This document shows positions 1,907-29,047 of a stretch of 64,000 nt of DNA, piece after piece (position 1 is the stretch's first letter; the number at the start of each line of letters is the position of its first letter). The position numbers and the translations under genes were made by a program. Origin of the DNA: Cylindrotheca closterium. Taxonomy: Eukaryota > Bacillariophyta > Bacillariophyceae > Bacillariales > Bacillariaceae. The stretch covers positions 764,816 through 828,815 of the forward strand of contig CAKOGP040001869.1 of NCBI GenBank assembly GCA_933822405.4. The letters are read 5' to 3'. The notes beneath the pieces were generated by a model. The model was not told the DNA's origin and did not search any database. It was given only the letters and a program-made list of their open reading frames with translations.

Positions 1907-3333
1907 ATGATGAAACGACGCAGACCTTCTAGAAATCCCTCTTGTCTTGGAAGGCTAGCACTGGGATGCATCTTATTATGTCAAAAACAAACATCAGCGT
2001 TTACTTCCAGGCCTCATGCCGGCGTAGGACTCGACATTCACGCGTGGAAGATCCCATGCTCTTCGTGGCCAACAAGGAAGAATGATTTACGAAGGCCCAA
2101 ATGTCGGCAATTTTTTTCACATCCAGCTACGTCAGCGGGTTGGGAGAGCCCTGACGCTGGTGCAAAGAGACGGCCTCGATGGGCAAGAAGTTGGATGCCG
2201 ACATGGCTATTTAATCTGCGACCATCCGTTCAGATCGCTGCTCTCCTATTGACCTATTTGTTGCACATTACTGTACTTTGTCAGAGGTCGATTCACTTTC
2301 CCGTTCAACTCATTCCAAATGAACGAGGCCATTTTCAGAGTATTGGTTTGGACTCGTAAGTTTCGTGGTTTGAAAGATTTTCCGATTTTTACAGTCGTCG
2401 TCGGCATCTGACGTTATCTTTCTTCTTTTTTCCAGGGTTGCAGGAATGGTTTCCTTGGCCATCTACCAATATATAAGAAGGCTTAGCAAAAGTGCTAAGA
2501 GCAATGTTTCCAACGTAGAAAGCAGCGACGCGGTTGAACTAGCGAGTACCGTCCCATCCCTCTTGTCAACCCCAACCCTTGAGGAATCTCCTTGGAAGAG
2601 TGTTTTCAACTCGAAATTTGCTGAACTTAGCTCGTTCCTGGCGTTCTGTGCCCTGGTACTAGGTTATTTTTCAACTGGTAGATTCAGCATTTTCTGGGAG
2701 GACGCATTCTACTACATTGCAAACTTCTATCCAATGACAATAGCAATGCACCGATCGTTGTGTGTCCTTTTCGGTCACCTTAGCTGGATAGCCATTGGCT
2801 TTGTGATTCTTCGGGCAATTCCCCGTCCACAGAATCTATTCAAGAATCAATGGTACACTCGAAAGTTCCGCGGTGCGCAGTGGCTATGGTGGACACTTGG
2901 GGGCTACTTTGTGTCATCATGGTTCTTCAACATAGCTGATTTTACAAATCAATGCGTCCTGCCTCTTCCGATCCTAGAAGAAGCCCAAAATTCTGTTGTC
3001 TCTCAATTAATCAATCCAGAATTCAACGACTGGATCGCTTCGGCGGTAGGATACATTGCTCCATGCATAACTGCCCCTTGGTGGGAGGAAGTCCTCTATC
3101 GTGGTTTTCTTTTACCCGCATTCACTTTGCGGATGAAATTCAAATGGGCTGTCTTTTTAAATGGGATAATTTTCTCAGCCCATCACATGTCAATTACGGG
3201 TGCTATCCCGCTCGCTGTGTTGGCTTGGACCTGGTGCATCGTCTACGCCAAAAGTGGAAATCTATTGTCAACAATTCTGATTCACACCATGTGGAACTCA
3301 AGGATATTCATTGGTAGCTGGTTTGGTTTATAA
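1907..3333 (+). CDS. Plastid CPBP-family (CAAX protease-like) intramembrane protease
   Basis: Two exons, 1907-2355 and 2436-3333; intron 2356-2435 has GTAAG and TCCAG ends and the joint restores the frame (448 residues). The N-terminus is a signal-peptide-like stretch ending in TSAFTSRP, a diatom SAF plastid-entry motif. The C-terminal half has several membrane segments and the CPBP/Abi motifs: EEVLYRG (about residues 367-373), FSAHH (about 396) and a late His in LIHTMWNS (about 433). These supply the Glu and His residues of the presumed metal site. The family includes Rce1 prenyl-protein proteases and chloroplast envelope or thylakoid members in plants. The substrate cannot be told. It ends 69 bases from the stop of the convergent fibrillin gene. 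Confidence 0.85.
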
Positions 3334-15622: not shown

Positions 15623-16252
15623 ATGTTCTCCTCATTTTCTCGCGCATCCTCAATGGCCATTCGCCGGGTTGCCGTCCGAGGCTTTGCTTCGGAGGCTTCT
15701 CACAAGCCCGTCATTCAAATTTACGGCATCCACGCCCGTTACGCCAACGCCACATACATGGCCGCCTCCAAGGCCGGTGTTTTGGAAAAGGTCGAGGGTG
15801 AACTCGCTGGGTTGGCCAAGAGCGCGGAAGAGTCTGCTGCCTTTGCCGGTTTCTTGGAGAATCCCATGATTCCTCGCGACGAAAAGTCGAAACAAATTGA
15901 GGACATGCTCAAGACCAAGGTTTCTCCCATCACTCTCAACCTTTGCACCACTTTGGCTGGAAACGCCAAATTGATTGATCTTCCCAAGGTTGCTGACACT
16001 TATGCAAGATTGATGAAGGCCAAGCGAGGACAAGTCGATGCCGTCATCATTAGTGCCGAGGCTTTGACTTCCCAACAATCCAGCCAAATCGCTGCCGCCA
16101 TCAAGGCATCCACCAAGGATGCCAAGGAGGTCGTTATTACTTCTGAAGTTGATGCTTCCATCATTGGAGGAATCCAAGTGCAAATTGGAGATCAATTCTT
16201 GGATCTTTCCGTCAAGTCGCGCATTGAGGAAATCTCCCGAACTCCCATCTAA
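15623..16252 (+). CDS. Mitochondrial ATP synthase OSCP (delta-type) subunit
   Basis: Single exon, 209 residues. Residues 1-22 (MFSSFSRASSMAIRRVAVRG) form a basic mitochondrial presequence. The OSCP/delta domain then begins at IQIYGIHARYANATYMAAS, the usual start. It ends with the signature near EVVITSEVDASIIGGIQVQIGD, followed by DLSVKSRIEEI. Length and order match mitochondrial OSCP, which ties the F1 head to the peripheral stalk. The presequence lacks a signal peptide or AF motif, so this is the mitochondrial form and not plastid AtpD. Confidence 0.95.
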   Translation: MFSSFSRASSMAIRRVAVRGFASEASHKPVIQIYGIHARYANATYMAASKAGVLEKVEGELAGLAKSAEESAAFAGFLENPMIPRDEKSKQIEDMLKTKVSPITLNLCTTLAGNAKLIDLPKVADTYARLMKAKRGQVDAVIISAEALTSQQSSQIAAAIKASTKDAKEVVITSEVDASIIGGIQVQIGDQFLDLSVKSRIEEISRTPI

Positions 16253-18056: not shown

Positions 18057-21000
18057 ATGGCTTCTGGCGGTCCTCCTCCTGCCTTTGGCTTTCGACCGCC
18101 TCCGCCACCCAATGGCGGTGGTCCATTCCGTCCTCCACCACCACCTGGGCGGACATCATCGTATGATTCTGAAGGAGAGGAAGGTGGCGCATTGACTTCT
18201 ACCATTAATTTGGTCACATCGGCGGCGAACATGTTGTTTAAACCTCCTCCACCTCCTTCCAGTGGTAATGCTCCGCCACCGCCACAATCGATGCCACCAC
18301 CAAGGCAGCCCCCAGCTCCTATTGAAGCGACAAACTCCATGTTGGATACACCAGCCGCTGCGTTTCAGGCTCCTCCTCCTGAACTAGACCTGAGGACGAC
18401 TCCACGGAGTCAGAGTAACACGCCTCAAAGAATGACGACCATCAGTGGAGTTCCGCAAGCTGCTATCCCAACCATGCCCTCCTTGTCAGCAACGCCAACG
18501 CAGTTTCCTCCACCGAGATCCACGGCCGAAGGGTTGTTTGGGTCCAGTACTGAGCCTACTTCCACCATGATGCCACAACCAGGAGCGTCACCAATGGCAG
18601 CAGCCATGGCAGCAGCGAGTACTAGTAGTCCACAAAATGTGTTTCAGGCACCACCACCACCTGGCAATGCAGCGAGTGGGTTTCAAGGGCCATCACCCAT
18701 CATGCCACAACCAGGAGCGTCACCGATGGCAGCAGCCATGGCAGCAGTGAGTACTAGTAGTCCACAAAATGTGTTTCAGGCACCACCACCACCTGGCAAT
18801 GCAGCTAGCGGGTTTCAAGGGCCACCACCCATCATGCCACAACCAGGAGCGTCACCGATGGCAGCAGCCATGGCAGCAGCGAGTAGTACTACTACCACAC
18901 CACCCTCAAGCTTTCAACCGCCATCGTCGCCGGCAAACAATAATAATACACAACAAAAAGTACGGGGAGTCATCAATGCGGTTGCGGTTGCCAACAAATT
19001 CATGAAGATGAGCCCCAAGAGGAACCAAACAGCTTCACCAGTACCCCCCGCTTCTGCTGGAGGATTTCAGCCACCACCATCCTCGGATGCTCCCACATTG
19101 CGTGGAACCATTGGCGCTGTGGCAGTAGCCAACAAGTTTATGAGCATGGCAAACAACAACAAGTCTAAAACGAAAGAACAAGAACCACCAGCATCTCCAA
19201 AGCCAACGAGTCCAAGCCCATTGCGGGGTGTAGTCAATGCCGTGGCAGTGGCCAATAAGTTTATGAAAATGAAGAAGTCAGCGGATGATGAACCACCAGA
19301 AGGAAGAGACAATGGGCAACAATTTCAGGACAAACAGCAGGCATCACCAGCGCAACAGCTTCGAGGAGCGGTCAATGCAGTCAAGTTGACAAACACGTTG
19401 AAGGGTGGTTCAGAAAGTAGTACTCAAGACAAACAGCAGCCATCACCAGCCCAACAGCTTCGAGGAGCGGTAAATGCTGTCAAGTTAACAAATACGTTGA
19501 AGGGTGGTTCAGAGGAGCCAGCGTCACCAGCGCAACAGCTTCGAGGAGCAGTCGATGCTGTCAAGTTGACAAACACATTGAAGGGCCCAAAGGAGCCATC
19601 ATCACCAGCACAACAACTTCGAGGAGCAGTCAATGCTGTCAAGTTGACAAACACATTGAAGGGCCCAAAGGAGCCCGCATCACCAGCACAACAACTTCGA
19701 GGAGCAGTCAATGCTGTCAAGTTGACAAACACATTGAAGGGCCCAAAGGAGCCAGCATCACCAGCACAACAGCTTCGAGGAGCAGTCAATGCAGTCAAGT
19801 TGTCAAACACATTGAAGGGCCCAGAGGAGCCAGCATCACCAGCACAGCAACTTCGAGGGGCAGTGACAACCGTCACGGCTTCCAACAGTTTGGGGGCTTC
19901 CTCTCCAAAAAGGCCACCAATTCAAAAGTTTACACCACCACCATCGCCGCGAGTACACCAGGTGTCAACGAGGAGCCCAAAGACGCCATTGATCGCCAAT
20001 ACATTGCCACCAAGCAGCAGCAGCAGTCAGACGACGACGCCCATTCGAAAGTTGAATTTACCTACTCCCTCTCCACGTGCCCGCACGTTGGTTGCTGGTA
20101 TTACAACCACGCCGCATCGTCAACTCCGACTTCCTCCAAAGTCTAGTAGTACCACCTCTACCAGCAAGAATACTACACCGAGATCCAAATTTCGATTGCC
20201 GCCGCCTCGTACAAAGTCGACGACACCTGAGCCAGTGGTTAATCTCAAACCAAAGGTGGACGAAGCACCATCGATGCCAGAAACATCAGCAGCAAGCACT
20301 AGTAGCACTACTGCTGCTCCAGGCGGTGAAACAATAGCGACGCAAGCAGAGAATAGTACTTCAGCGGAATCCAAGTCCACCGAACAGTCTGCTGCAGCCG
20401 TCGAGGAAGCCCCAACACCAGCTTCTGCTTTTATGGAACCACCCAAACCAGCGGAGGATGCGTTGCCCGAAGGATGGGTCGCAACGAAGGACCCAACACT
20501 GGGAAAAATCTATTACTACAATACTGAGACTCAAGAAACCTCGTGGGAAAAACCGTTTCCGCAAGCGCCATCGACAGATAACACGATTGAAGTCTTGTCC
20601 CAATTGAACAAAACGTCTACGGAGGCGACTGCTATTTCGTCTGCGGCACCAGTGGAAGAGGAAGAACCGCAAACACACGATGCTACTGAGTGGTCCGAAG
20701 TCACGGATCCTGCTAGTGGAGAGGTATATTACTACAACGTAGTGACTCAGGAAACCTCGTGGGATCGTCCAGCAGCCATGGACCAACCACCTGTCAAGGA
20801 AAGTGAGACAGTGTCCGCGGCAGACTCCAAGGAGGAAATGCTGGCAGAAGAGTCCGTTGAGGAGACAGTTGCAGCGTCTTTGCCACAAGCACCAGCGACC
20901 GATAATACGATCGAAGTCTTGTCCCAATTGAACAAGAAATCTGCTGCAGCAACTGCTATTTCGACTGCACCATCTGTGGAAGAGGAAGAAACGGAGGCAA

Positions 21001-24000
21001 AATATGAGTGGTCCGCAGTCACAGATCCTGTCAGTGGAGAGGTGTATTATTATAACGTGGTGACACAGGAAACCTCTTGGGATCGTCCAGCAGCCATGGA
21101 CCAACCTGCGAAGGAAAGTGAAGCAGTTTTACCCGCATCAGATTCTAAGGAAGAGATCTCAGCAGACGAGTCCATTGAGAATACATTTGCAGAATTGAAT
21201 GCCGAGTTTGGTTACGTGGATCCTTCGGAAACCGCAGACGAAAAGGAGGAAGAACCCACGCCCGCTGGTTCAGTAACAGAAGAGAAAGATGCACTTCCAG
21301 ACGGCTGGACCGAAGTGGTTGATCCATCGAGTGGTGAAACCTACTATTACAATCCCGCCACACAGGAAACATCCTGGGAAATGCCAGCAGAGGAACCGAA
21401 AGCGACCAAGGTAACCGAGGCTCCATCCACGGATACGACGATGGAAGTCCTGTCGTCAATGTCGCAGCAACCCGAAGAATTGGCAGTACCAGCACTGGGC
21501 GAATCACCAGAGGACGATGGCGATTTGCCAGACGGCTGGGAAGAGGTTGTTGATCCAAATAGTGGAGATGTTTACTATTTCAATTCTGGTTCTAACGAAA
21601 CATCGTGGGAGCGCCCAGGTGCCGAGCCAGCAAACGAAAAAAGTGGCGAAGTGGAAGTGGTAGCATCAGAGGAGATGAAGTCATCAGCCCCAGCGGTGGA
21701 AGAAGCAGCAGAAGAGACTGCTGGCTTAGCTACAGAGTGGGAAGAAGTTATTGATCCAAATAGTGGTGATATCTATTATTTCAATTCTGTAACCAACGAA
21801 ACGTCGTGGGAGCGTCCAAGCGTAGAACAAATGAATGGAGACAGTGTCGAGTTGGAACCAACGGCATCAGAAGATGTCCAGCTGGAAGAGCCATCAGAGC
21901 TGGGTGTTGATCCCTTGGTTGTCGCAAGTGAATCAGAGGACGCAGAAGCTGATACTGAATCGAGTGATCTTCCTGAGAACTGGACCGAGGCTGTAGATGA
22001 GTCTTCCGGTCAGACGTATTTCTACAATTCTCTGACAGAGGAGACATCCTGGGAAAGACCAACGAACGACGAAGCCGTGCTTGAAGAGCAGGAAGAGATA
22101 CACGAGGACGACCCAGATAAAAATGTCGTTTCAGATTTCAAAACTGGTGCAGGGTTGAATACTGCTGTTGAAGACTCAGTTTTTCCTGCTGATTGGATCG
22201 AAGCAGTGGACGAATCTAGTGGACAGACTTACTACTACAACACTGCAACTCAAGAGACTTCTTGGGAGAAACCACTGATTACCTCAGATTTACGAGACGA
22301 GGTTGCAGCCGATGCGACCGACGACCGTAGCGAAACCGAAGATAAACAAGAGGACGCAGCTGTGAATGAGACCACACCAGAGACTGATGACGGTCTTCCA
22401 TCAGATTGGATTGAGACGGAGGATGGAAATGGTCAAGTGTACTATTACAACACCGTCACCAACGAAACTTCTTGGGAAAGACCGCGGAATGAAAGAGATG
22501 AAGATAGAGGTGTTGACGAGGTCGAGCAAGAGGGAGATAAAGCCGAGGCTGATGGTGTCGATATTGACGAGGGCGATAATGTTATGGATGAGGATCCAGC
22601 AGACGATCAAGATGAACTTCCAAGCGATTGGGTTGAAGCAGTCGATGAGTCGACTGGACAGACGTACTACTACAACACAGTGACTCAAGAAACAGCTTGG
22701 GAGAGGCCTCCAATGGCCTCAGATGGACAAGAAAAAGATGCTGGTGACGCAGATGAAGCAGAATATTCTACTGCTGAAGATGACCAAACTGATGGTGTTG
22801 TGGATGACAGTACGCCAACCACCGAAGATGAGATGCCTGCTGATTGGATCGAAGCAGTGGACGAATCTAGTGGACAGACTTACTACTACAACACTGCGAC
22901 TCAAGAGACTTCTTGGGAGAAACCACTGACTACCTCAGATGCACGAGACGAGGTTGCAGCCGATGCGACCGACGACCGTAGCGAAACCGAAGAAAATCAA
23001 GAGGACGCAGCTGTGAATGAGACCACACCAGAGACTGATGAAGGTCTTCCATCAGATTGGATTGAGACGGAGGATGGAAATGGTCAAGTGTACTATTACA
23101 ACACCGTCACCAACGAAACTTCTTGGGAAAGACCGCGGAATGAAAGAGATGAAGATAGAGGTGTCGACGAGGTCGAGCAAGAGGGAGATCAAACTGAGGC
23201 AGATGCTAGTGATGATGACGAGGGCGGCAATGTCACGGGTGATTACCATGACCAAAAAGGCGATGATGCTGATACAGATGAAGCCGAAGATCATTCTGCT
23301 GCTGAAGATGCCAAAGCTTCTGCGGCCGCGGATGAGAGTACGCCAGCTACCGAAGATGAGATGCCTACTGATTGGATCGAAGCAGTGGACGAATCTAGTG
23401 GAAAGACTTACTACTACAACACTGCGACTCAAGAAACATCTTGGGAAAAGCCATCTAGTTCTGTTTTAGAGGATGAATCTGAAGCTGTTGAGCAGGAGGA
23501 AAAGGCAGCGGAAGTCACTGATGAACATGACGATCTGAATGCTGAAGTAGACGCTGAAGAAGCGGACGAACAACAGCTTCTAGGTGATTGGGTCGAAGCT
23601 GTTGATGAACAGAATGGCCAAACTTACTACTATAATCCAGTGACACAAGAAACGTCCTGGGAGAAGCCCATTGTTGATTCGGCTGAAAAAGCAGAGGCAC
23701 AAGAAGAAATCCCAGTTGAAAGTAGTGAAGCAGAAGAAGTTCCCGAAGAAACGGATGCTGGTGATGCTGCAGGCGATTGGACGGAAGCAGTAGACGAATC
23801 TACTGGCCAAACGTACTATTACAATGCCCGCACTGAAGAGACTACTTGGGAAAAGCCACTAGTACTTCAAGAAGAAGACGAGGGTCATGAGGAGCACATT
23901 GGTGACGACACTGATGGCGATGCCGAACCGAGTGCTGAAGCCGAAGATCAGAATCTGGCCGACGAATGGATTGAAGCTGTTGACGAATCGACTGGCCAGA

Positions 24001-27000
24001 CATACTACTACAACACGGTGACCCAAGAGACATCTTGGGAAAAGCCGTCTTCTTTGATCACCAGTAACGAGAGTGAAGAAGTCGCAGATGGCGATGGCGA
24101 AAGCGAAAACTCTTTCGACGGCCAGGAAAGTGACAATATGAAAGGAGCCGGGGAACGAAGTCATCCAACCAATGATGTGTCGGAGAGCACAGATATTTCT
24201 GCACATGACCCTGACGATGATGCACCGACCACAGTTCTTCCTGAGTGTTGGACTTCAGCGATTGACGAAAGGACAGGAAAGACATACTACTTCAACTCGT
24301 TGACCCAGGAGACGTCTTGGGAATTTCCGCGGGGCAGTTCGGATGGTGAAGCTAGTGTGGGGTCAAGTGAAGAGCAAGACGTGACTGATTCAGTTCCTGC
24401 TGAGACACCTGTGGAAAAGGAGGACGAAGACCTTCCAGAAAACTGGTCAAAGGAGATCGATGAGACAACATTGAAGATTTACTACTACAACAATGTCACG
24501 CACGAATCATCATGGAAAAAGCCTGGTGTTGAAACAGATGCCGATGTTCAAGACAGCGAACATACAGAAACGGAACATTCGGAACACGATCCCGATTTAC
24601 AAGCGAGTGACGATATGTGCAAGAAAGAAGGAGAAGACCAACGAAATGAAGATGGCGAGACTCCTCAAGTTGACTGGATTGAAGCCGTTGACGAGGCTAG
24701 CGGACAGACCTACTTCTACAACACAGTCACTGGAGAAACTTCTTGGGAAAAGCCGGTTGAACTGATGCAATCTGACGACGAGGGTGACAAAGACGAAGCG
24801 GACGATGGAGCCGATAACGATATCGACGACGCTGCTCCGACCAATACCGAAGACGACAACGAGCAGGACGAAGGACCTGGGCTTCCCGTCAACTGGACCG
24901 AGGCGGTCGACGAATCGAATGGGCAGACTTACTACTACAATACAGAGACGCAAGAAACTTCTTGGGAAAAGCCTGTTTTCACACCATCGGAAACTTTAAA
25001 TGACATCGCCGACGAGAATGAATTGCCTGCTGAGGAGTTTGAAGGCGAAGTTCAAGATGCGAGCCCTTCCCCTACAGTTGATGAACCCGACATGCGCCAT
25101 GGAGAGAGCGGGTTTCCATCCGACTGGACTGAAGTCGTTGATGAGGCTAGTGGCCAGTTTTACTATTATAATTCAGTTACGCAAGAAACATCCTGGACGA
25201 AGCCTTCTGTGGCATTGGACGACGCTGCACCCGAAGCTGCGATAGACGAAATGTTACCTTTGACAGATAGTGCCGCTGAAGAATCCAGCATCCATTTTGA
25301 AGAGCCCGAATCAGAAAAGGTAGTTGATGCGGACAATAAGGAGCTTCCCGAGGATTGGATTGAAGCCGTCGATGAGGGCAACGGGAAAACTTATTATTAC
25401 AACACTGTCACTCAAGAAACTTCCTGGGAAAGTCCTAACGCTGCTTTGGAAGAAGAGATTGCAGCAACGCCCGAGAGCAATGAGAATCTTCTAGATGAGT
25501 CCGTTGCGGCACCGGAAGCGGCCGAAACGAATGACCTGGTGGTGGCCAAAGCAACCGAAAACATTCCAGGAGACGACCTTCCAAGTGACTGGATCGAAGC
25601 TGCTGACGAGTCTAGTGGACAAACATATTACTACAACACTGTTACCCAGGAAACATCTTGGGAGAAGCCTTCTATCACCCTGAAGGAGGCTGTATCTGAT
25701 GTTGCTGATGAAACCCCAAATGCTGCGATTGAAAACGCTACCGACACAGAAGATGCAGCCACTGACGGGTCTGAGGATAATAGAGCTAAAGAGGACGAAG
25801 CCGAAGATCACGGAGAAGAGCTTTCGGGCGATTGGATTGAAACAGTTGACGAAGCCAGTGGGCAAACCTACTATTTCAATACTGTCACACAGGAGACATC
25901 CTGGAAAAAGCCATCCAAAACTGTCGAAGAAGACGAAGATGTAGTAGACGAGAAGAATAAGCACGTTGGAGGCGATGGTGTCGTGGAGCAAGCAGATGCC
26001 GTAGAAGGGAAAATGGAGTCCGACAACGATGACCTTCCAAGTGACTGGATTGAATCCATGGATGAATCAAGCGGACGACCTTACTACTATAACACTGTCA
26101 CCCAAGAGACTTCGTGGGATAGGCCGTCTTCAAACACTGCTATGGAGGATGCAGCTGAGGTTGCTGACGAAATTCAAGATACACTGGTTGAGAATCCTGC
26201 TGATGCCGACGTTGGTGAGCCTCTGACTACTGAAACCGCAGTTTCGGAAGGCATAGTGCAAGAAGAAGATCCCCAACGTGAGTGGATCGAAACCGTCGAC
26301 GAGTCCACGGGGCAAGTGTACTACTTCAACACTGTAACGCAAGAAACTTCCTGGGAAAAGCCTTCCTCTTTGCAGCCAGCAGATAAGGGGCACGAGGAAG
26401 ACAGCAGTGGAATTGCTGACGAGACACTATTTTCTGAAAAGAGGATGGAAGATGACGCCATTGATGTGGACAAAACAGATGCCGCGATGGGGAATAGTCT
26501 TGATGTGTCGCAAGAATCCCTGCCTAGTGGTTGGGTCGAAGTCGTTGATGAAGATTCTGGAAATGTGTATTTTTACAACTCAGAGACCAATGAAACTTCA
26601 TGGGAGAAACCTTCGACGGAACCTTCTGAGCCAATAGCTGAGAGTCTGCCCAATGTGTTGGCTGATGAAGAAGACATCGTAGGAGAGGCATCCAATCAAG
26701 AGTGGGAAATAGTTGATGAGCCAAAGGATGATATTGTGATAATGGATGATACCAAGGATACAGATGTTGATCTTGCAACACACATTGCCAATCTATGCGA
26801 CGAGCGTGGAGGTGTTGGTATTATTGGACCTTTGAGCTTATCTGAGGACGATGCAGTTCTTTCATATATCAAATTGAAGTATGAGAATACACGAAATCCA
26901 CTGTGGGGTTTGATTGACATCGCAGCACGGTCAAGAGGAAGGCTTCGAAGCGAAGATGGCGTTGCTGATAGAAACAGTCCAGAATCTTCGATTGTTGAAC

Positions 27001-29047
27001 TACTGCTTAGAGAGTCAAATGGGAAATCCCCTGCTGCCCCATCGTCGAAACAGCAACAAAGTCCGTCTCCAGCGGAAGAAGGTAAGTGAGAATATTGAGT
27101 CATGTGATGAATGTGACTTCGTGGCTGACAACATGTTTCCGTCTTTCCATTGCAGATGACGATCTCAGAATGGAACGAGTTCAGAGTCTGTTGCTCCGAG
27201 GAAACCGAGTGGAAGCAGTGAAGGAAGCAGTCGAGTGCCAAGACTTTGCTACCGCACTGTTGGTTGCAAGTATGTGTGACCCCGAGACCTACAAATTTGC
27301 TGCCAAAGCATATGCAGAAAATGTCTTCGTCGGAGGTTCTCCAATGTATACACTTGGGATGCTTTTCTCAGGTTCGATTCAAGTGCCTTCAGAATCGTCC
27401 TCAAACAGTTTCTGGGGGATCGGTGCTAACGAGTTGAACTCAACTTGGAAAAAGCACCTTGCCGCAGTTATTAGCAATCGCACTGCTGGTTGGGACCGTG
27501 TTGTCCTTTCTCTGGGTGACAGATTAAGAGAGATTGGTGCAATTGAAGGAGCGCATTTCTGTTACATGGTCTGTGGCTGCCCTTTCACTGACCCACTGGA
27601 CCCAACTACGCGAGTATCGCTTCTGGGTTGCGATCATGTCGATAAGTCGGTCGTTTGCCTGGCAACAAATGCTGCAATCGATTCATTCTATCAAACCGAA
27701 GCGTACGAGTGGGCAAAGCGTAGAGGAAACAAAAATGCTACAATCAAGACTTTCCAACCGTTCAAGGTGATTTTCGCGACATCCTTGGTCGATTTTGGCT
27801 TTGAAGATTCTGCTAGCCTATTTACTCTGGGAATTCGTCACTGTTCTGATATCCCTTCAGCTGAGCCAATCGACCTCGCAGGAGAGCAATGGGGGCAGGT
27901 TTTTGAAGATACCAATGCCTTAGCTGGTGCTTTTTGTGCTCTTGAGATGCGCCTGGATTTGGTTCCTGACCAAGACGAACCTGAATACGACCACGTCGAG
28001 GATGAGGTACCGCCTGCATTTGAGGGTGAAAGGCCTGCTGCAATGAATCCAGATGATTCTTACGCGGAAGAAAATCGGGATGCAGTCAATTCAACCTTGA
28101 ACTTGACGGATAACGACGCCACTTTTGTTACTGCGGCTTCCAATCTTATGGAAAAGCCCGGATTCTCCATGACTCCTCAAAGGGAGACACCACAAGCACC
28201 AACAGCCGAAGCCATGGTGCTGCAAGAACCAGATGGCATGGTACCACCTCAGGTCGAACGGTTGTCGACCGTTGCTCCACCCGTGGCGCCATTGAAAGAG
28301 GATGTATCTAGAAAGCGCACCCAAGCAATGCCGCCACAAATGCCACCTACACCGACAGCGCGAAACAATGCGAGCAATAACGAGGACGTGTCCACCCCAA
28401 TGCCTGCAGATCCTACTACCGCTGCTGCAATGCCAGCCATGACGCCACAAGAAACCATGAAACAACCTGAGAAAGCGCCGAGCACTGCCCCATCAGTTAT
28501 GATGGGCAAGAAGAGCGACGCCAAGGTTAACAAGAAGAGTGCACCATCATCTACCGAGAAGCCCCGCAGTGGAGGACTGTTGAGTGGCTTTCGAAGCATG
28601 ATGATCAAGCGCTTCAATAAAGATGCAGTGGAATGCAGCTTGCCTGACAATGAAGAAAAGGCTTATTATGACGAGAAGTTGAAAAGATGGGTCTTCCCCG
28701 GTGATGATTTGGACGAGTTGGCCAAGCCCATGGCCCCACCACCTCTCATGCCAAGTGGAGGAGACTCCAAGCCAGCTATAGAGCCTGAACCAAAGCCCGA
28801 TAGTAATGATCCGTTGGCGGCCATGATGGCACCACCGTCCCGGCGACCTGCCGCATTGCGTCGCCCAGGTGCAACTCCTTCTATGCCACCAGGTGGCGGT
28901 GGAATGCCTCCGATGCCGGGAATGCCACCTATGATGATGCCGGGAATGCCTTCTCCTGCAGCTGGAGGAGGAGCTGCTGCCCCACCTCAATTTGCTGTTT
29001 TTACGCCATCCAAGAAAGAAAAGGAACAAACGAAGGAGGAAGAATAA
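18057..29047 (+). CDS. SEC16: Giant Sec16-like ER exit site scaffold with 27 WW domains
   Basis: Two exons, 18057-27081 (9,025 bases) and 27156-29047; a 74-base GTAAG..TGCAG intron with a phase-1 joint; about 3,638 residues. Order: Pro-rich start with FRPPPPP; three 44-residue repeats (172-300); ten LRGAVNAVKLTNTLKG-like repeats (300-610); a Ser/Pro/Thr stretch; then 27 WW domains (about 800-2853) joined by acidic linkers. WW consensus: W-x-E-x-x-D-x-x-x-G-x-x-YYYN-x-x-x-x-ETSWEKP, both Trp kept. The Sec16 central helical domain follows (about 2900-3245): NPLWGLIDIAARSRG, then VQSLLLRGNRVEAVKEAV and HFCYMVCGCPF. Near the end AYYDEKLKRWVFPGDD matches the conserved C-terminal Sec16 motif, followed by a Pro/Met/Gly tail. 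Sec16 organises COPII budding; WW domains are not a known part of it. Confidence 0.9.
18570..18965 (+). repeat. Three 132-base tandem repeats inside the Sec16-like gene
   Basis: Units begin at 18570, 18702 and 18834 and encode MPQPGASPMAAAMAA followed by a Pro-rich stretch with VFQAPPPPGNAASGF. The first two units are almost identical; the third diverges after about 80 bases. The period is a multiple of three, so the frame is kept. Confidence 0.85.
18960..19885 (+). repeat. LRGAVNAVKLTNTLKG repeat array in the Sec16-like gene
   Basis: Ten related units by eye. The first three read NAVAVANKFMKM-type and are widely spaced (about 18964, 19099, 19225). Six nearly identical LRGAVNAVKLTNTLKG units follow, most 75 bases apart with PKEPASPAQQ spacers. 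A last degenerate copy ends near 19890. Each unit could form a short amphipathic helix. Confidence 0.85.
22185..23190 (+). repeat. Recent internal duplication of WW domains (651-base period)
   Basis: The segment from about 22185 to 22540 recurs at about 22836 to 23190 with only a few changes, including in the acidic linker (RDEVAADATDDRSETE). It copies WW 8 and 9 as WW 11 and 12. The offset of 651 bases is 217 codons. Confidence 0.85.

What the first reader, a model, noticed from the sequence alone, without database searches (positions are those of the whole stretch)
18057..29047. A Sec16-type ER exit scaffold carrying 27 WW domains
Seen: one protein joins a WW array (27 copies, both Trp kept in nearly all) to the Sec16 central helical domain and the C-terminal YYDEKLKRWV motif. 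Known: Sec16 of animals, plants and yeast has no WW domains. The same protein starts with polyproline runs that could be WW ligands, as could the Pro-rich Sec31. Inference: this is a multivalent condensate-like scaffold for COPII sites, perhaps linked to the heavy secretion of silica and plastid cargo.
Basis: partly seen in the sequence, partly recalled or inferred. Interest (0 to 1): 0.88.

Follow-up and report, generated by a model that had tools for sequence, protein, structure and literature searches.

The report
Diatom Sec16 with 27 WW domains
In diatoms the protein that organises the places where cargo leaves the endoplasmic reticulum carries long strings of small proline-binding WW domains, and its partner Sec31 carries one, which suggests that diatoms wire this export machinery together in their own way.

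Summary
One gene (exons 18057-27081 and 27156-29047, intron 27082-27155) encodes 3,638 aa: 27 intact WW domains followed by the Sec16 central domain. The spliced protein is identical to a public Cylindrotheca closterium (diatom) gene model. The Sec16 fold is split by the intron: exon 2 alone matches yeast Sec16 only from residue 1129, an ortholog from 990. The closest solved fold is Sec16, ahead of Sec31. The fusion is general: 44 of 45 diatom-type Sec16 proteins found have 1-28 WW domains, all upstream of the Sec16 domain; five non-diatom-type ones have none. New here: this genome's Sec31 also has a WW domain, as have 120 of 120 listed Sec31 hits, itself included. The WW copy tested is nearest to PRP40/PRPF40A. 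Best reading: WW domains on Sec16 and Sec31 read proline tracts on Sec24 and on Sec16's own N-terminus, replacing part of the PPP-Sec23 wiring of yeast and mammals. Binding is inferred, not shown. The silica and plastid link is untested.

The parts
18057..27081 (+). Exon 1 of the Sec16 gene (start codon to intron): Pro-rich N-terminus, N-terminal repeat, 27 WW domains, first helices of the Sec16 central domain
   Evidence: open frame; Pfam; identical to public protein P0001 when joined to exon 2
18057..18956 (+). Pro-rich N-terminal part; 14 runs of three or more Pro lie before the first WW (aa 1-802)
   Evidence: sequence, counts
18942..19913 (+). Ten copies of a repeat of the type LRGAVNAVKLTNTLKG, aa 296-619
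   Evidence: not found in the other 170 proteins fetched
20463..26612 (+). Array of 27 WW domains separated by 26 acidic linkers of 32-75 aa (34% Asp/Glu, 4% Lys/Arg), aa 803-2852
22185..22484 (+). First copy of a recent duplication inside the array (pair with 22836-23135, 98% identical)
   Evidence: codon comparison
22836..23135 (+). Second copy of that duplication
   Evidence: codon comparison
26817..27081 (+). First helices of the Sec16 central domain, encoded in exon 1 (GIIGPL...LWGLIDIAARSRGRL...)
   Evidence: matched by diatom relatives; exon 2 alone lacks the first part of the fold
27082..27155 (+). Intron, 74 nt, GTAAGT...TTGCAG
   Evidence: public gene model
27156..29047 (+). Exon 2: rest of the Sec16 central domain and Pro/Met-rich C-terminal tail, to the stop codon
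27179..27817 (+). TPR_Sec16 (Sec23-binding) Pfam match
   Evidence: E=1.8e-31; fold match to 3mzk
28664..28708 (+). C-terminal motif YYDEKLKRWVFPGDD

Best explanation
The gene encodes the diatom Sec16, by homology the scaffold of endoplasmic-reticulum exit sites. Shown by sequence: one protein joins 27 WW domains to a Sec16 central domain; the same order occurs in nearly all diatom-type Sec16s found; the diatom Sec31s listed carry one WW domain and most lack PPP runs; in this genome one Sec24 has a long Pro/Arg-rich C-terminal extension and a second Sec24-like protein a polyproline N-terminus. Inferred mechanism: the WW array is a multivalent reader that holds many inner-coat complexes (Sec23-Sec24) at the exit site through Sec24's proline tracts, while Sec16's own N-terminal proline runs compete for the same WW domains and keep the array closed until better ligands arrive, as others showed for human PRPF40A. 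Sec31's single WW would join the same proline network from the outer coat.
Against: No binding, localisation or expression data. The 27 copies need not all bind. PPLP, the strongest known PRPF40A motif, is absent from this Sec16 and from the frames printed for the four Sec23/Sec24-type loci of this genome; it occurs once or twice in 14 of 45 diatom-type Sec16s, and PPxY in 10 of 45. Sec24 was examined in this one genome only, and whether such proline-rich ends are ordinary for Sec24 elsewhere was not tested. The exon that holds the Sec24 tail had no match of its own in solved structures; it is assigned by the splice join (four in-frame joins were possible). Rank 4 for the WW copy is a NEDD4-like chain, so the class call is not clean. 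Sec31's WW differs from the Sec16 type (YYANQ against mostly YY[Y/F]N), so the two may read different ligands. Diatom Sec23 may still read PPP; its cleft was not tested. The Sec31 search region included the WW, which favours finding it, and 44 of 164 hits were not shown.
Confidence: 0.55

Rival explanations
1. The WW array on Sec16 mainly binds partners outside the COPII coat (cargo receptors, formin-like or RNA-linked proteins), so Sec16 is a hub that brings other processes to exit sites.
For: The copy tested is nearest to splicing-factor WW domains; WW domains of this genome also occur outside COPII, among them an ankyrin protein with five WW and a FYVE protein with two.
Against: Proline tracts lie on core coat proteins of the same genome, and a second coat scaffold, Sec31, also has a WW.
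Confidence: 0.2
2. The array is chiefly intramolecular: N-terminal proline runs fold back on the WW domains and the protein associates with itself, with little role for other ligands.
For: 14 runs of three or more Pro before the first WW in this protein; 14 of the 15 Sec16s with 350 aa or more before the first WW have at least one such run; precedent in PRPF40A.
Against: Run numbers vary from 0 to 15 and were not compared with shuffled sequence; 27 WW against 14 runs; does not explain the WW in Sec31.
Confidence: 0.15
3. The array has grown by near-neutral tandem duplication as a long acidic spacer; only a few WW domains matter.
For: Copy number ranges from 1 to 28 in 44 proteins, some of them fragments. 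In nine of the ten arrays that I chose to compare, the nearest WW lies in the same protein far more often than expected (21.0 of 27 against 3.6 here); the tenth, P0012, shows almost no excess (1.0 of 12 against 0.7). A 300-nt block is 98% identical to its copy.
Against: All 27 copies keep both Trp, Pro and core residues, and replacement differences are 0.29 of synonymous ones.
Confidence: 0.08
4. Two adjacent genes were joined by a wrong gene model.
For: No transcript reads could be examined.
Against: The Sec16 domain itself is split by the intron; same fusion in 44 of 45 diatom-type relatives; one-frame fusion in P0014.
Confidence: 0.02

Closest known systems
Sec16 (yeast structure 3mzk; fungal and animal Sec16)
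   Same: Central helical Sec23-binding domain by profile and fold; long low-confidence regions beside it in the models; C-terminal motif of the YYDEKLKRWV kind, in looser form also in a crab Sec16.
   Different: 27 WW domains upstream. The mid-region profile PF12932 and the FGFGG strand, kept by most diatom-type Sec16s, are not found in this protein.
Sec31 / Sec13-Sec31 outer coat
   Same: Related helical fold; the diatom Sec31s listed also have a WW domain.
   Different: The window protein has no WD40 propeller match and fits Sec16 better in both fold comparisons.
PRP40/PRPF40A (FBP11) tandem WW proteins
   Same: Best solved matches of the WW copy tested; N-terminal proline runs ahead of the WW domains, which in PRPF40A bind back and sharpen selectivity (PMC11079029, passages).
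   Different: Two WW there, 27 here; splicing factor there, COPII scaffold here.
PPP-motif wiring of COPII through the Sec23 gelsolin domain (Sec31, Sec16, TANGO1)
   Same: Multivalent weak proline-based contacts in coat assembly (PMC7594496, passages).
   Different: In diatoms the scaffolds carry WW domains, 57 of 73 Sec31s lack PPP, and in this genome long proline tracts are on Sec24.

Membership tests
Sec16 | Central helical Sec23-binding domain (PF12931) | tested here: met
   E=1.8e-31 in exon 2; 106.9 bits against a cut-off of 22 in the spliced protein. PF12931 also matches Sec31, so the next rows are needed
Sec16 | Fold closer to Sec16 than to Sec31 | tested here: met
Sec16 | No WD40 propeller (which would mark Sec31) | tested here: met
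   No WD40 match in either exon at E up to 1; the Sec31 of this genome is a separate gene with a propeller
Sec16 | Mid-region profile PF12932 / FGFGG strand (common but not taken as defining: crab Sec16 P0050 and most diatom-type Sec16s are listed with PF12931 only) | tested here: not met
   No match in P0001 at E up to 0.1; met in ortholog P0042, E=2.2e-9. FGFGG in 34 of 45 diatom-type Sec16s, variants in 3, cut off in 1, missing in 7 including this one
Sec16 | Location at ER exit sites; binding of Sec23, Sec24 and Sec13 | not testable with these tools
   needs cells or purified protein
WW domain | Two Trp about 20-24 residues apart, aromatic core, closing Pro | tested here: met
   27 of 27 copies
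WW class reading PPLP / polyproline / Pro-Arg (PRP40/FBP11 type) | Sequence nearest to PRP40/FBP11; aromatic third core residue | tested here: inconclusive
   Best three solved chains for one copy are PRP40 and PRPF40A, the fourth NEDD4-like; third core residue Tyr, Phe or Trp in 383 of 493 WW of 44 Sec16s. The class rule is recalled; ligands were not tested
Sec31 (second gene, outside the window) | WD40 propeller and helical domain of Sec31 | tested here: met
   PDB Sec31A E=4.6e-48 and yeast Sec31 E=3.1e-44; WD40, PF12931 and WW in the same public protein P0052

The most novel reading that the evidence does not exclude
Diatoms have turned round the proline code of COPII: proline readers (WW) sit on the scaffolds Sec16 and Sec31, and proline ligands on the cargo adaptor Sec24, instead of PPP motifs on Sec31/Sec16 read by Sec23. 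In the Cylindrotheca/Nitzschia group the arrays grew while the FGFGG strand of the Sec16 domain (by recall, the piece that closes the Sec13 propeller) was lost, so WW-proline contacts took over part of the scaffold's coupling to the coat.
Probability: 0.35. Interest if true: 0.87.

Novelty: new variant of a known kind. Interest (0 to 1): 0.72.

Why it matters
COPII is treated as one of the most conserved coats. A major algal group in which both scaffold proteins carry proline-reading domains would show that the flexible contacts between coat layers can be rebuilt with a different module, and gives a natural series of array sizes (1-28 WW found) to test how multivalency sets exit-site size and secretion rate. 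It also offers a diatom-specific handle on the secretory pathway that feeds cell-wall and plastid traffic, though that link is not shown here.

Tried and rejected
Two-gene artefact: rejected because the Sec16 domain is split across the intron and relatives are fused. Sec31 mis-named as Sec16: rejected. N-terminal repeat as an amphipathic membrane helix: 18-63% of shuffles reach the observed helical moment, so dropped. PPxY as the ligand class: none in the window protein or its Sec31, one in the Sec24 tail, one or two in 10 of 45 diatom-type Sec16s. Spread of the Sec31 stretch SKYGDGF...QYGNVGT: in this genome only Sec31 itself was found at E up to 1. Foldseek for the exon 2 model gave no match at E of 0.001 or better (best 0.0012, Sec16). 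The exon with the Sec24 tail had no match in solved structures at E up to 0.001. Sequence search of solved structures with exon 2 found only yeast Sec16, at E=0.87. My spliced Sec31 has 1,051 aa, the public model P0052 1,038; residues 470-1051 agree fully, the difference upstream was not resolved.

Literature (listings only unless said): Sec16 + WW domain, 10 papers; Sec16 + diatom, 6; WW domain + COPII, 50 papers, 15 listed; diatom + COPII + Sec31, 4; a five-term COPII evolution search, 1. No title or abstract start shown describes WW in Sec16 or Sec31; 35 of the 50 were not shown. PMC4419792 was seen in passages: 'WW domain' and 'diatom' do not occur in its main text. Searches with 'triple proline' and 'polyproline' plus Sec terms gave none; 'PPP motif' gave 3, of which I read passages of PMC7594496. 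WW/FBP11 gave 4, of which I read passages of PMC11079029. A Cylindrotheca genome search was seen as a listing.

Limits: no Sec16 named as from a non-diatom stramenopile appeared in either Sec16 search.
Full report
What is there. The window lies on contig C329 of a 47.6-Mb assembly, and the spliced product of the finding equals a public protein of Cylindrotheca closterium, a diatom. Exon 1 (18057-27081) reads for 3,008 codons and one base; exon 2 (27156-29047) continues in phase after a 74-nt intron with GTAAGT and TTGCAG ends. The protein has 3,638 residues. Order: Pro-rich N-terminus, ten copies of an 'LRGAVNAVKLTNTLKG' repeat (aa 296-619), 27 WW domains (aa 803-2852) with 26 acidic linkers of 32-75 aa (34% Asp/Glu, 4% Lys/Arg), the Sec16 central domain (about 2921-3260), and a Pro/Met-rich tail with YYDEKLKRWVFPGDD. 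This gene holds 27 of the 51 WW matches listed for the whole genome; such counts are lower bounds.

How widespread? Two searches with the Sec16 domain (candidates limited by length and shared words) gave 51 distinct proteins. Fifty have the Sec16 domain. Of these, five are not diatom-type: Thecaphora and Seirophora, Clarireedia, Petrolisthes and one unnamed protein with the same Pfam set as Clarireedia; the first three are fungi and Petrolisthes a crab, by recall. None of the five has a WW. Forty-five are diatom-type by similarity; ten of them are named and all ten are diatoms (Cylindrotheca, two Nitzschia, Fragilaria, Epithemia, two Thalassiosira, three Skeletonema), so pennate and centric groups are both covered. 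With a WW model built from this array, 44 of the 45 have 1-28 WW, 493 in all, every one upstream of the Sec16 domain; the exception, P0043, is an 845-aa protein whose Sec16 match starts at residue 95. The fifty-first protein, P0051, has nine WW but no Sec16 domain. In P0014 ten WW and the Sec16 domain are read in one frame that fills 5,463 of 5,510 bases of its contig.

Sec31 as well. The only other PF12931 locus found in the genome is Sec31. My model has six exons, with one WW domain in the fifth; the public protein P0052 is 13 residues shorter, identical over the part searched, and has WD40, PF12931 and WW; Sec31 is its best match among solved structures. A search with residues 470-1051 found 164 proteins, of which 120 are listed, P0052 included; all 120 have exactly one WW. 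The other 44 could not be seen, and the region searched included the WW. Nine listed proteins have MMETSP among their sources, with transcript names, so WW-Sec31 is transcribed as one message in those. Its core differs from the Sec16 type: third position Ala in 108 of 120 and the residue two further on Gln in 107 of 120, whereas Sec16 WW have Tyr or Phe in the third position in 375 of 493. A stretch after the WW, SKYGDGFVTSASHPELAxQYGNVGTSNPY, is nearly invariant in the 40 Sec31s that I aligned, of 73 of 950 aa or more.

Where are the ligands? For the one WW copy tested the three best solved chains are PRP40 and PRPF40A, the fourth NEDD4-like. PRPF40A WW domains read PPLP and PPPP (PMC11079029, passages). 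Sec31 in this genome has no PPP run, and 57 of 73 diatom Sec31s of 950 aa or more have none; this contradicts the 'Pro-rich Sec31' of the finding. The main Sec24 (E=1e-154 to human Sec24A, matched 38-668 of 748) can be joined through an intron to a further exon that ends in a tail of about 225 residues with four runs of four or more Pro, six Pro-Arg sites, three PGM and one PPxY, no PPLP. That exon has no match of its own in solved structures and is assigned by the join, the best-looking of four in-frame ones. A second Sec24-like protein (E=3.4e-21) starts with polyproline and Pro-Arg runs. Sec23 (E=5e-235) has one run of four or more Pro. This Sec16 has 14 runs of three or more Pro before its first WW; of the 15 Sec16s with at least 350 aa before the first WW, 14 have one or more (range 0-15, not compared with shuffles). 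PPLP is absent from this Sec16 but occurs in 14 of 45 diatom-type ones. PRPF40A shows that N-terminal proline motifs can bind back on the WW domains and filter weak ligands. Sec24 of other diatoms was not examined.

How it may work. In yeast and mammals the proline-rich region of Sec31 is the known link between coat layers, PPP motifs of Sec31 and TANGO1 bind the Sec23 gelsolin domain and are also found in Sec16, and the upstream region of yeast Sec16 binds Sec24 (PMC7594496, passages). In diatoms the upstream region of Sec16 holds the WW array, most Sec31s have no PPP and carry a WW, and in this genome long proline tracts are on Sec24. The simplest reading is that WW-proline contacts do part of the job of PPP-Sec23 contacts, with many weak sites giving a dense, adjustable scaffold. 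This is inference from anatomy; no binding was tested, and whether diatom Sec23 still reads PPP was not examined.

Evolution of the array. In nine of the ten arrays that I chose to compare (of 44), the nearest relative of a WW lies in the same protein far more often than expected (21.0 of 27 against 3.6 here); P0012 shows almost no excess (1.0 of 12 against 0.7). So most of these arrays expand and turn over within lineages. A 300-nt block is repeated 651 nt downstream at 98% identity. Over 127 codons of that duplication (aa 1377-1503 against 1594-1720) there are 3 synonymous and 10 replacement changes, none of the replacements inside the two WW domains; one more lies at aa 1376, at the edge of the first. 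Across 300 pairs, replacement differences are 0.29 of synonymous ones. The FGFGG strand at the start of the Sec16 domain, which by recall closes the Sec13 propeller, is in 34 of 45 diatom-type Sec16s, in variant form in three, cut off in one, and missing in seven close relatives including this one; PF12932, which covers it, matches P0042 but not the window protein. Four of the seven begin with Met and have 22-27 WW. A link between loss of that strand and array growth is a hypothesis.

Literature. No paper on WW domains in Sec16 or Sec31 was seen in the listings of five searches (of the 50 papers only 15 were listed). The COPII comparative study PMC4419792 notes that only the central Sec16 domain is strongly conserved and, in its main text, has no 'WW domain' and no 'diatom' (passages). 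One source names the Fragilaria protein 'COPII vesicle coating', so an annotation has already placed it in COPII.

Noticed in passing
G000 contig C329:61910-65414 (L011 1910-5414): Sec31 of this genome carries one WW domain in its own exon, followed by the nearly invariant stretch SKYGDGFVTSASHPELAxQYGNVGTSNPY; the WW is in all 120 listed Sec31s, the stretch in most of the 40 aligned.
   Followed up: yes
L017 3463-4410 (contig C57) and L019 883-4290 (contig C535): A Sec24 with a Pro/Arg-rich C-terminal extension, and a second Sec24-like protein with a polyproline N-terminus.
   Followed up: partly
window 18942-19913: Ten-copy N-terminal repeat LRGAVNAVKLTNTLKG, not found in the other 170 proteins fetched; no amphipathic signal above shuffles.
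   Followed up: partly
window 26613-26816: The FGFGG strand kept by most diatom-type Sec16s is missing here and in six close relatives; the PF12932 profile does not match this protein.
   Followed up: partly
G000 contig C329 (Sec31 near 62 kb, Sec23 near 676 kb, Sec16 near 783 kb): Three COPII coat genes lie on one 1.02-Mb contig, about 2% of the assembly; noticed after the fact, may be chance.
   Followed up: no
L024 1525-4536, - strand (contig C289): Ankyrin-repeat protein with five WW of the same type as in Sec16 and Pro-rich parts; a stretch SKYSADGFHSSSSDVNLQQKYGHATG looks by eye like the conserved Sec31 stretch, though the search with that stretch did not list it.
   Followed up: partly
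L022 2480-5341 (contig C387): Protein with two WW domains and a FYVE zinc finger.
   Followed up: no
window 15623-16252: ATP synthase delta (OSCP) subunit gene upstream of the Sec16 gene.
   Followed up: yes
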